From NCBI GenBank assembly GCA_935421135.1, contig OW285192.1, positions 19,135,001 to 19,199,000 on the forward strand: DNA of 64,000 nucleotides, written 5' to 3'. The notes beneath the pieces were generated by a model. That model saw only the letters and a program-made list of their open reading frames with translations. It searched no databases and was not told the DNA's origin. Made by a program: the position numbers and the translations under genes. This DNA comes from Bugulina stolonifera (Eukaryota > Bryozoa > Gymnolaemata > Cheilostomatida > Bugulidae). Shown here piece by piece: positions 14,801 through 61,740 of this stretch. Numbering within the stretch: position 1 is the first letter of the stretch; every line of letters starts with the position of its first letter.

Positions 14801-17800
14801 ACATGCAGAGTATTTTCTCTTATATACTATTCATGCAGAGGTAAATATCTGTATAATGTACAACTTTGAGATAGCAGGCAAAATAAATAACAAATAACTT
14901 AATAGTAGGTACTAAGTACCTATGTAGCAGTAATTAAACTAGCACACGAGAATGAATGAAAATATTCATTTCAATAGAAATCAGATTTCCATTTATAAAC
15001 CTTGTAGTTCTGCCTGCGAGCTTCTACCAGTCTTCATGACCAGATATTCAGGAAGCTGGTATCCAGTCCAATGAGTTTCTTTGACGTCACGACATCTGGG
15101 CAGATAATAAACAGATTCTCCAAAGATATGGATGAGAGTATGTAGAGGAGCAACACTCCCATTGTCTCATTTGCATGGTTGTTATAGTTCAGTGTACTAA
15201 GACATGATGATCAACCCCAATTATGTCCAGTAGTAGTGAGGAGGGCTACTCACACTTAGAGGAGTCTGTCTATCTACTATATTACTATTTGATAGATGAA
15301 TCAGGTGGTCAAGTCGCACCTCCATGGCTATTCTTAGACTTATTTAAGGTTTATTAAAGGATTTTGTAGTTACTGAAATAGATTAATAATGTCAAACATA
15401 TCGTATAAACTTACTATATGTCATTTTGTAGGTGATACAAACCTCCCGTTTCAGTCAGACCAGTTTTTCAGAACTTCTGCCATCATATTGGGATCATTTA
15501 CAGTCATAATAATCATCACTCCATACTTCCTGTTGGTGATGATTCCTATTGCACTCATTTTCATCTTCTCTGCCAGGTTCTGCCAGAAGGGAATCCAACT
15601 ATCAAAGAGGTAACAACTCCCAATCAATGTGGTCAACTGTAGAAATATATTTGTAGGAACACCCTGTACATGAATTAATTGTCTTGGAATTGACCTAGAA
15701 AAGTTTTGCAAACAACGATGATGGAGATCATTGTATTTTATTTTTAATCAAACTTTAATAGTTTGAATTTGTAGGTCTTTTAAATAAACTATGAACTCTG
15801 TACAACAGATACAAACATAACTGGAGGAGATTTTTATAGAGAGAGGTTTCCCTTTAACAAGTTCACTTCAAGTTACATTTACTGCCAGTGTTATTTTTAT
15901 TATGTACTTGTTAATGGTGTGCATTTTTACCTTCAGGTTAGAAAATGTTACAAAGTCTCCATTATTCAGTCACATTGCAACAACTGTGCAGGGACTAGCT
16001 ACTATTAGAGCATATAAGAAGGAAGACAGATTTTTAGATCGGTATGTATTTCTATCGGTATGTATCTTTGCCGGTATGTATTTCTATCGGAATGGATCTC
16101 TGTCGGTATGTACCTCTGTCGATATGTACATGTGTTTCTGTCGGTATGTATCTCTGTCTTTTGATCATCGATAGTAATCCAGATTTTCTAAAAATTTATT
16201 AGTACATGCAATTAGAATAACTGATGAAATGGCACTGCACTACTGTTAATTCAATATTACAGATTTAACTATTTCCAAGACCGTAACAGCATGGCACAGC
16301 ATTTATTTGACGTGGTAATGAGATGGTCTTCTGTGAGGCTTACCTCCATCAGCTTACTGATAACTTTGGTTACGTTTCTTTTCATCTCCTTCGTACCTCT
16401 GGAGTCTGTTACTCCATCTATGATGGCTCTGGCTCTAACATATGCGCTCAGTGTAAGTCATGAATAATTTGTCATTTACACTTTAAATTTGAAAACTATG
16501 GCCACATTAGTTTTGTCAAGGATGAGGATTTAAAAACCTGGAAATCTATGTTAAACCATTTGCCTATTTTGCTGCATATAATGAGGGAAAGGAGTTTGAG
16601 TACTTAATCAGAGATGTGTTGGTATAAGAGTTTTATCTGATGGTTGTTCGTACAGATAGGAGACATGCTCCAGTTCACTGTGATTCAGGGAATAGAGTCC
16701 TCAGCCAGATTTACATCTGTAGAGAGAATACAGAACTATATTGAGGTAAGCCGCAGCTCTATTTCATTTCTACACTATTTATAAAAAATCACTCAGGGAC
16801 TCATGTGTACACATAGTATAATAATTATGTGTACATGTGCACGTGTACTGGTGTAAGAGTACTGATGTACATGCACATACATGTACCTATGTAAATATAT
16901 GTATATATACATGTATGCAGGCATCCAAATAAAGTGTCTGTGTAAGAACTGCAAGTATAATCACATTTGCAATAAAAACATCTTATATTTAAAGTAGAAT
17001 TTTTTCTGGATGTTTTGTGATAATTCTCTGCGAACCTTTCACTGTGAAAGAGCTCAGTAGCTTATGATATAAGTAGTATAGTCAGTGCAGATCTGAACTG
17101 ACTATGCTACTGATATCGCTAGACAACACAAGTTACTCTGATTGCTAAAGTAGAAAATCTTACATTTAGAATCTGGTTTCCGAAGCTCCTGGTATCATTG
17201 AAGACAACAGACCTAAAGAGAGCTGGCCTGAGGAAGGAGCTATAAAGTTTGATAATGTAGATGTAAGATACAGAGAAGGTCTACCTCTTGTACTAAAGAG
17301 TATTTCACTAGATATACAACCTCAGGAGAAGATTGGTATAGTCGGTAGAACTGGGTCAGGTATGACATCACTCTGTTTAGAGTCATGTTGGAGTAATGTA
17401 GTTATAACGTAACGTTGTTAGTTTTTTAAGCGGCGCATTTTGACTTCTCATCGTCAGAAGTATAATATTGTTATCTGCATTACCTCATCTATCAAAAGCA
17501 TGCACGATTATTCTCAATGACACCAACTCAGCTATATAAAATAGACACATACAATGTATGTTTGTAGTAATTCATAGACAAGTAATACATTTGTCCCTAC
17601 TTTGATTCTATAGGAAAGTCTTCGCTAGCCCTGACACTATTCCGGATAATGGAGTTGGCTGGTGGAAGTATAACTATAGATAACGTTGATATAAGTACTA
17701 TTGGACTGGAAGATCTCAGATCTAAACTATCTATTATACCTCAGGATCCTGTGCTATTTGTCGGCACAGTCAGGTACAGCTGAAATAATCCTGAATAATG

Positions 17801-61740: not shown

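What the first reader, a model, noticed from the sequence alone, without database searches (positions are those of the whole stretch)
16036..59385. Recurrent minisatellites seeded at splice sites
At least five exon borders in three genes on both strands have grown tandem arrays whose unit contains part of the exon and the splice signal. They are ABCC-A exon 22 donor (16 bp), ABCC-B exon 3 donor (31 bp), ABCC-B exon 5 donor (29 bp), MFS exon 9 acceptor (40 bp) and MFS exon 4 donor (21 bp). Units include exonic bases, so the arrays arose from the junction and do not merely lie near it. Intron gain by tandem duplication of an AG-GT segment is an established model; a locus with several such events suggests a lineage-specific process or repeat-prone splice sites.
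Basis: partly seen in the sequence, partly recalled or inferred. Interest (0 to 1): 0.85.

Follow-up and report, generated by a model that had tools for sequence, protein, structure and literature searches.

The report
Intron minisatellites overlapping exon borders
In a moss-animal genome whose introns are rich in short tandem repeats, several repeats have copied the edge of an exon together with its splice signal; the pattern is real and resembles the 'mirages' described in amphioxus, but in the sample examined splice sites are not hit more often than the rest of the intron.

Summary
All five claimed arrays exist at exon borders, their units contain exon bases, and the exon numbers agree with my gene models. 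A sixth, weak case lies at the MFS exon 10 donor.

The phenomenon is not confined to this locus: donor arrays occur in sampled loci elsewhere and at one homologous junction in three of four ABC-transporter paralogs.

'Repeat-prone splice sites' is not supported. About 9% of intron sequence lies in tandem arrays. Of 303 introns, 11 donors and 3 acceptors recur in the neighbouring intron, against 4-5% of interior positions. Within introns, TRF coverage is lowest next to the borders. Ten of 82 intron arrays span a border, against 6.2 expected if straddling duplications are simply tolerated (P=0.08; looser overlap P=0.03).

Best reading: ordinary minisatellite birth and growth, tolerated at donors because the exon-proximal donor still works, matching amphioxus 'mirages' (PMC3087553, passages read). 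No intron gain is shown: the three ABCC introns concerned exist in both paralogs.

The parts
15937..16041 (+). ABCC-A exon 22, ending ..TTTTTAGATCG|gtatgt
   Evidence: continuous reading frame of 21 joined exons; same exon length (105) in ABCC-B
16039..16128 (+). 16-bp array starting on the ABCC-A exon 22 donor
   Evidence: TRF; units and donor copies
21964..22111 (+). ABCC-B exon 3, ending ..CTACTTAGGTCG|gtaagt
   Evidence: gene model, same length (148) as ABCC-A exon 3
22100..22287 (+). 31-bp array, 6 copies, with 12 exon bases plus donor
   Evidence: TRF; 5 extra copies scored, all keep GT
22711..22793 (+). ABCC-B exon 5, ending ..ACATCAGTAGGAGAG|gtaagt
   Evidence: gene model, same length (83) as ABCC-A exon 5
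22779..23135 (+). 29-bp array, 12 copies, with 15 exon bases plus donor
   Evidence: TRF; 11 extra copies scored, 10 keep GT
45125..45220 (-). MFS (SLC18B1-like) exon 9, acceptor ..ttctag|GTACTTTGTG
   Evidence: manual model; protein alignment with Bugula neritina, with a gap just before this junction
45205..45532 (-). 40-bp array, about 8 copies, with acceptor AG plus 16 exon bases; the most 3' copy is the real border
   Evidence: TRF; sequence
59378..59446 (-). MFS exon 4, ending ..GCACTATACCAG|gtatgc
   Evidence: manual model; protein alignment
58532..59394 (-). degenerate 21-bp array running from the exon 4 donor into the intron, broken near 58.8-58.95k by a SINE-like insert (by eye); 4 of 5 scored copies have lost GT
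   Evidence: TRF rows 59353-59394, 59237-59286, 58957-59190, 58532-58713; copies
44591..44704 (-). 51-bp x2.2 repeat that begins on the MFS exon 10 donor (44703); weak sixth case
   Evidence: TRF; sequence; no copy at >=11/16 of the junction 16-mer

Best explanation
These are ordinary intronic minisatellites of a genome with many of them, whose founding duplication happened to straddle an exon border. A short duplication covering the last 3-17 exon bases and the donor leaves the original exon and donor in place and adds a second donor inside the intron. Splicing at the exon-proximal donor still gives the normal mRNA, so the duplication is about as harmless as one inside the intron, and it then grows and shrinks like any other minisatellite. 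Straddling an acceptor seems less tolerated, plausibly because extra AG signals and the branch/pyrimidine region lie upstream of the real one. Shown: the anatomy, no excess at borders in the sample, lower coverage on the acceptor side, and one array shared by two paralogs with different copy numbers. Inferred: continued use of the exon-proximal site, and neutrality. Not shown: how the first duplication arises. One paralog (L007) suggests templated filling at a break, since a 32-nt junction copy follows almost directly where a MITE-like element is cut short.
For: (a) Arrays cover 9,954 of 107,919 intron bp and 12,327 of 133,973, 9.2% in both. (b) Self-similarity of a junction 16-mer (8 exon + 8 intron): donors 11/268 against 4.5-6.2% in the six distance bins inside the intron, per-intron mean 4.3% (CI 3.0-5.9); acceptors 3/268. 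Fresh loci: 0/35 donors and 0/35 acceptors against a per-intron interior mean of 6.6%. Combined 11/303 and 3/303 against 4.8% (downstream) and 4.4% (upstream); donors were below the interior in all five settings, and in both settings run on the 181 introns of sampled loci alone. (c) TRF crossing: donors 11/303, acceptors 5/303, intron midpoints 22/303 (P=0.07 and 0.001 against midpoints), coverage rising with distance from either border. (d) Arrays spanning a border by >=3 bp each side: 10 of 82 against 6.2 expected under a tolerated-duplication null, P=0.08; outside the window 6 of 50 against 3.9, P=0.18. (e) ABCC-A and ABCC-B line up over 28 introns and share no border array, so those arrays were added to existing introns. 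(f) L001 (5 copies) and L030 (2 copies plus a possible third, by eye) share a 35-bp unit at the same junction (a 13/16 match at +35 in L030).
Against: With looser overlap the spanning count is nominally high: >=2 bp, 12 of 82 against 6.9, P=0.03; >=1 bp, 13 of 82 against 7.7, P=0.03; window alone 6 of 32 against 2.6, P=0.03, though the window was chosen because it showed this. Two apparently independent duplications at one homologous donor of the ABC paralogs would be unexpected under a uniform process. The sample leaves room for up to 6.4% at donors, so a mild enrichment is not excluded. The 16-mer test misses old or short-overlap cases: neither MFS exon 4 nor exon 10 is among its 11 donors, and 2 of the 11 (L010 at 6427 and 9420) have no TRF array and may be chance. 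Gene models outside the window are predictions without transcripts. TRF reported no array in the L030 piece.
Confidence: 0.8

Rival explanations
1. Splice donors are mutational hotspots for tandem duplication, for example through transcription-coupled breaks, R-loops, or the self-similar AG|GTAAGT word, and the genome has a lineage-specific process that seeds arrays there.
For: Six borders in one 64-kb window; window-only excess 6 of 32 against 2.6 at >=2 bp overlap, P=0.03; two apparent origins at one homologous junction of ABC paralogs.
Against: Donor rate not above interior rate in 268 plus 35 introns and under five settings; coverage falls towards borders with no peak there; loci outside the window not significant at any of three overlap limits (P 0.18, 0.26, 0.19).
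Confidence: 0.1
2. The arrays are intron gains in progress by duplication of an AGGT segment (Rogers model): array-internal sites create or enlarge introns.
For: Units carry splice signals; 39 of 45 correctly registered extra copies keep GT (copies were chosen by similarity, which favours this); human repeats at exon borders have been linked to new introns (PMC2812944, passages read).
Against: The introns with arrays in ABCC-A and ABCC-B exist in both paralogs with the same flanking exon lengths, so the arrays entered existing introns; 28 of the 45 inner donors lie at offsets that would shift the frame.
Confidence: 0.04
3. The arrays are functional: multiple donors tune splicing or intron size and are kept by selection.
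For: In the extra copies GT has per-base identity 0.915 against 0.82-0.83 for the rest of the junction 16-mer (includes the two mis-registered L030 rows, and copies were chosen by similarity).
Against: Border arrays are not shared between ABCC paralogs; 4 of 5 scored copies of the MFS exon 4 array have lost GT; copy number differs between paralogs.
Confidence: 0.04
4. Some of the border calls are artefacts of wrong exon ends or of assembly.
For: No transcripts could be mapped; several sample calls rest on predicted exons only (L015, L021, L026).
Against: Window borders are supported by paralogue and homologue alignments; the assembly is long-read and chromosome-scale (PMC10213821, passages read).
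Confidence: 0.02

Closest known systems
Amphioxus 'mirages' (Adh3, globins BflGb6 and BflGb9, PGBD5, troponin C); PMC3087553 and PMC3902484, passages read
   Same: Minisatellites that span exon/intron borders at donors or acceptors, units with exon bases and splice signals, unit lengths from 10 bp up, several genes in one genome
   Different: Here in a bryozoan; splicing and haplotype instability untested; here the rate at borders was compared with the intron interior, which the passages I read do not do
Intron gain by tandem genomic duplication of an AGGT segment (Rogers 1989, as cited in PMC3087553; potato RdRp case PMC4974935, search listing with start of abstract only)
   Same: Tandem copies containing splice signals
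   Different: No new intron is shown here; the ABCC introns concerned are present in both paralogs
Human variable internal tandem repeats in genes of segmental duplications (PMC2812944, passages read)
   Same: Minisatellite-length units, on average 30 bp, that can lie at exon-intron boundaries of paralogs
   Different: Those change exons, introns or transcripts; here no change of a coding exon was seen

Membership tests
Mirage (border-spanning minisatellite) | Tandem repeat spans an exon/intron border and the unit contains exon bases | tested here: met
   5 of 5 claimed borders, plus L010 and L001 elsewhere by TRF and L030 by eye
Mirage (border-spanning minisatellite) | Occurs at both donor and acceptor borders | tested here: met
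   4 donors (5 with the weak MFS exon 10 case) and 1 acceptor in the window
Mirage (border-spanning minisatellite) | Many repeat copies keep AG/GT signals | tested here: met
   39 of 45 correctly registered extra donor copies keep GT; copies were picked at >=11/16 similarity
Mirage (border-spanning minisatellite) | Does not disturb regular splicing | not testable with these tools
   no transcripts available; reading frames continue across the called junctions
Mirage (border-spanning minisatellite) | Copy-number instability between haplotypes or cells | not tested
   alternate haplotype not available here; two paralogs differ, 5 against 2-3 copies
Intron gain by tandem duplication | A new intron absent from relatives whose ends derive from the duplicate | tested here: not met
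   for the 3 ABCC arrays the intron is present in both paralogs; not tested for the other arrays
Splice-site repeat hotspot | Higher array rate at borders than inside introns | tested here: not met
   11/303 donors and 3/303 acceptors against 4-5% interior; coverage falls towards borders; nominal excess only with loose overlap and only in the window

The most novel reading that the evidence does not exclude
Some individual splice donors are recurrent birthplaces of minisatellites: break repair near the donor (for example after loss of part of a mobile element, as in L007) copies the junction as filler and later expands it, so that the intron keeps fossil copies of the exon end. In L007 the intron copy matches the sister paralogue's last 10 exon bases 10/10, while L007's own exon end now matches 8/10 (by eye; alignment).
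Probability: 0.12. Interest if true: 0.6.

Novelty: new member of a known kind. Interest (0 to 1): 0.38.

Why it matters
It carries border-spanning minisatellites beyond amphioxus to a bryozoan, and gives a simple quantitative null for them: in a genome whose introns are rich in minisatellites, a few per cent of donors should be drawn in by chance and tolerated. That null should be beaten before anyone claims splice-site hotspots or intron gain from such arrays. The copies may also act as small fossils of the exon end at the time of duplication.

Tried and rejected
Splice-site hotspot: not supported, for lack of an excess over intron interior. Intron gain: rejected for the three ABCC arrays. 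A robust donor/acceptor asymmetry: suggestive only; Fisher P=0.055 at best among five settings on 303 introns and 0.20 for TRF crossing, although acceptors are below intron midpoints (5 against 22 of 303, P=0.001). Purging of decoy donors: not seen; most scored copies keep GT. A genome-wide count of repeated GGTAAGT words was planned, but the search machine did not complete.

Limits: gene models come from a small home-made predictor trained on the window's ABCC-A exons; window models were partly corrected by hand, sample models were not. The ABCC-B model as joined has a wrong exon 10, which puts the rest out of frame there (79 stops), so its protein comparison with ABCC-A covers only the first part (376 aligned positions, 64% identical); the later exons read in frame. 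The start exon of ABCC-A is not established. Predicted genes under a coding score of 20, introns under 80 bases and introns within 40 bases of a locus end were dropped before the rates; one search also left out L001-L008. The set of 303 introns includes the window and ABC loci, which were not drawn blindly; the 181 from evenly spaced loci were also tested alone. Sampled positions are evenly spaced (20 loci on C1, C4 and C6, then one each on six other chromosomes), not a random draw. The six fresh loci gave only 36 introns (35 used); the prediction noted beforehand was donors about 4%, acceptors about 1%, interior 4-5%, and the result was 0/35, 0/35 and 6.6%. In one search the L030 junction was set one base off, so its two rows are not in the 39 of 45. 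The MITE-like element has no second copy outside L007 and L029 in the sequence held, so that name is by eye.

Papers: PMC3087553, PMC3902484, PMC10213821 and PMC2812944 passages only; the original mirage paper (PMC117041) is not held and is known here only through PMC3087553. Statements about print rest on the searches; none of the rows they listed is a report of border-spanning arrays in a bryozoan, but only 15 of 430 papers were listed, and the library holds open-licence papers only.

Full report
Where it is. The window is G000:C6:19135001-19199000 in a genome of 234,951,659 bases in 27 contigs. Contig lengths 36,811,656 (C1), 20,477,502 (C4), 19,547,409 (C6) and 16,132,500 (C10) agree with the chromosome table of Bugulina stolonifera tzBugStol2.1 (36.81, 20.48, 19.55, 16.13 Mb; span 235.0) in PMC10213821 (passages read). 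C2, C3, C5, C7, C8 and C9 match 28.45, 26.37, 20.27, 19.49, 16.4 and 16.36 as well. The only three relatives of the MFS protein at E <= 1e-30 are Bugula neritina proteins. So this is a bryozoan.

Genes. A multicopper oxidase fragment, two tandem ABCC-type transporters modelled with 29 exons each, a gene with a weak Bcl-2 match (below Pfam's cut-off) and, on the minus strand, an MFS gene with 11 exons whose best relative is named SLC18B1. In the two ABCC models 21 of 29 exons have the same length, including exons 3, 5 and 22, which supports those borders.

The observation. TRF and reading in register confirm all five arrays. At ABCC-B exon 3 the exon ends CTACTTAGGTCG|GTAAGT and the 31-base unit is present six times. 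At exon 5 ACATCAGTAGGAGAG|GTAAGTC starts twelve copies of a 29-base unit. At ABCC-A exon 22 the period is 16. At the MFS exon 9 acceptor the unit holds the acceptor plus 16 exon bases, and the most 3' copy is the true border. The MFS exon 4 donor array is degenerate: 4 of 5 scored copies have lost GT. A sixth, weak case starts on the MFS exon 10 donor.

Is the border special? Three tests say no, within their power. (1) A junction 16-mer recurs within the next 250 intron bases at 11 of 268 donors; positions inside the same introns give 4.5-6.2% in six distance classes, and acceptors, tested upstream, 3 of 268. In six fresh loci the numbers were 0 of 35 and 0 of 35 against a per-intron interior mean of 6.6%. 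Together 11 of 303 and 3 of 303 against 4.8% and 4.4%; in four other settings donors (7, 10, 2 and 10 of 303) also stayed below the interior, and so did the 181 introns from evenly spaced loci in the two settings run on them (6 and 4 of 181). The test misses the MFS exon 4 and exon 10 donors, and 2 of its 11 donors have no TRF array. (2) TRF arrays cross 11 of 303 donors, 5 of 303 acceptors and 22 of 303 intron midpoints; coverage climbs from 1.3% at exon position -20 to 4.6% at +1, 6.6% at +20 and 10-13% at +150 to +200 (fewer introns are that long), and more slowly from the acceptor. (3) If a straddling duplication is as harmless as an intronic one, 6.2 of 82 intron arrays should span a border by at least 3 bp on each side; 10 do (7 donors, 3 acceptors, P=0.08). 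Outside the window it is 6 against 3.9 of 50 (P=0.18), in the window 4 against 2.3 of 32 (P=0.18). Looser overlap gives 12 or 13 of 82 with P=0.03 overall, carried by the window in which the pattern was noticed.

It is not confined to this locus. L010 has a 22-bp array of 11 copies on a predicted donor at 1485 and a 37-bp array of 3 copies on a predicted donor at 3821; L015, L021 and L026 have less certain cases.

History from paralogs. Over the 28 introns by which ABCC-A and ABCC-B line up, border arrays occur in B introns 3 and 5 and A intron 22, none in both: these arrays were added to existing introns. Four ABC-transporter paralogs on C4 can be compared at one junction (exon end ..FLCAL). 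L001 has five copies of a 35-bp unit. L030 has two copies of what looks like the same unit and perhaps a third beyond a SINE-like insert, by eye; TRF reported none there, but a 13/16 match lies at +35. L007 has a different duplication with two copies 68 apart, and L029 has none that I could see. L001 and L030 thus probably inherited one array, now of different size; L007's looks like a second origin. In L007 bases 1-156 align with L029 1-156 (exon, intron start and left arm of a MITE-like inverted-repeat element), and bases 160-191 align again with L029 92-123, the exon/intron junction, at 96.9%. That copy keeps TCTGTGCTCT, the exon end of L029, while L007's own exon end has two differences. 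This looks like filler copied into a break, but it is a single case.

How it works. The simplest account is that the first donor goes on being used, so extra donors downstream do no harm. 39 of 45 correctly registered extra copies keep GT (copies were picked by similarity), and many score as well as the first as donors, so purging of decoys is not evident. 28 of the 45 inner donors lie at offsets that would shift the frame; in ABCC-B exon 3, reading on from the exon meets TAA inside the second copy's donor (sequence). Use of the first donor is inferred, not shown.

What is known. This structure is described in amphioxus as 'mirages' in Adh3, globin and other genes, at both kinds of border, apparently without disturbing regular splicing, and has been offered there as a road to new introns (PMC3087553 and PMC3902484, passages read). 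The present case is the same kind of thing in another phylum. None of the rows listed is an earlier report for bryozoans; the library holds open-licence papers only, and one search listed 15 of 430.

Noticed in passing
window 50870-58200: A LINE-like element with two long open frames (946 aa with reverse transcriptase and endonuclease domains; 637 aa with an RNase H1 N-terminal-type domain) lies between two stretches of the same 21-bp minisatellite unit (50870-50924 and 57940-58200), as if it had inserted into the array.
   Followed up: partly
L007 2823-2855 and L029 2235-2474: A MITE-like inverted-repeat element is longer in L029 and cut to its left arm in L007, where a 32-nt copy of the exon/intron junction follows almost directly.
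   Followed up: partly
window near 46.4k, 49.7k, 58.9k (minus) and L030 intron: Sequences resembling tRNA-derived SINEs (by eye); one interrupts the MFS exon 4 array and one lies in the L030 array intron. ARAGORN reports no tRNA gene in the window.
   Followed up: no
window 47711-48612: A 15-bp array of 60 copies inside an MFS intron; the gene finder read the plus strand of it as one coding exon (47702-48646).
   Followed up: no
window 36446-40348: A gene model with a weak Bcl-2-family match (PF00452, E 3.7e-4, below the curated cut-off).
   Followed up: no
window 766-950 and about 46.9-47.1k: A 102-bp duplication near the multicopper oxidase exons resembles, by eye, sequence in an MFS intron: probably a dispersed repeat.
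   Followed up: no
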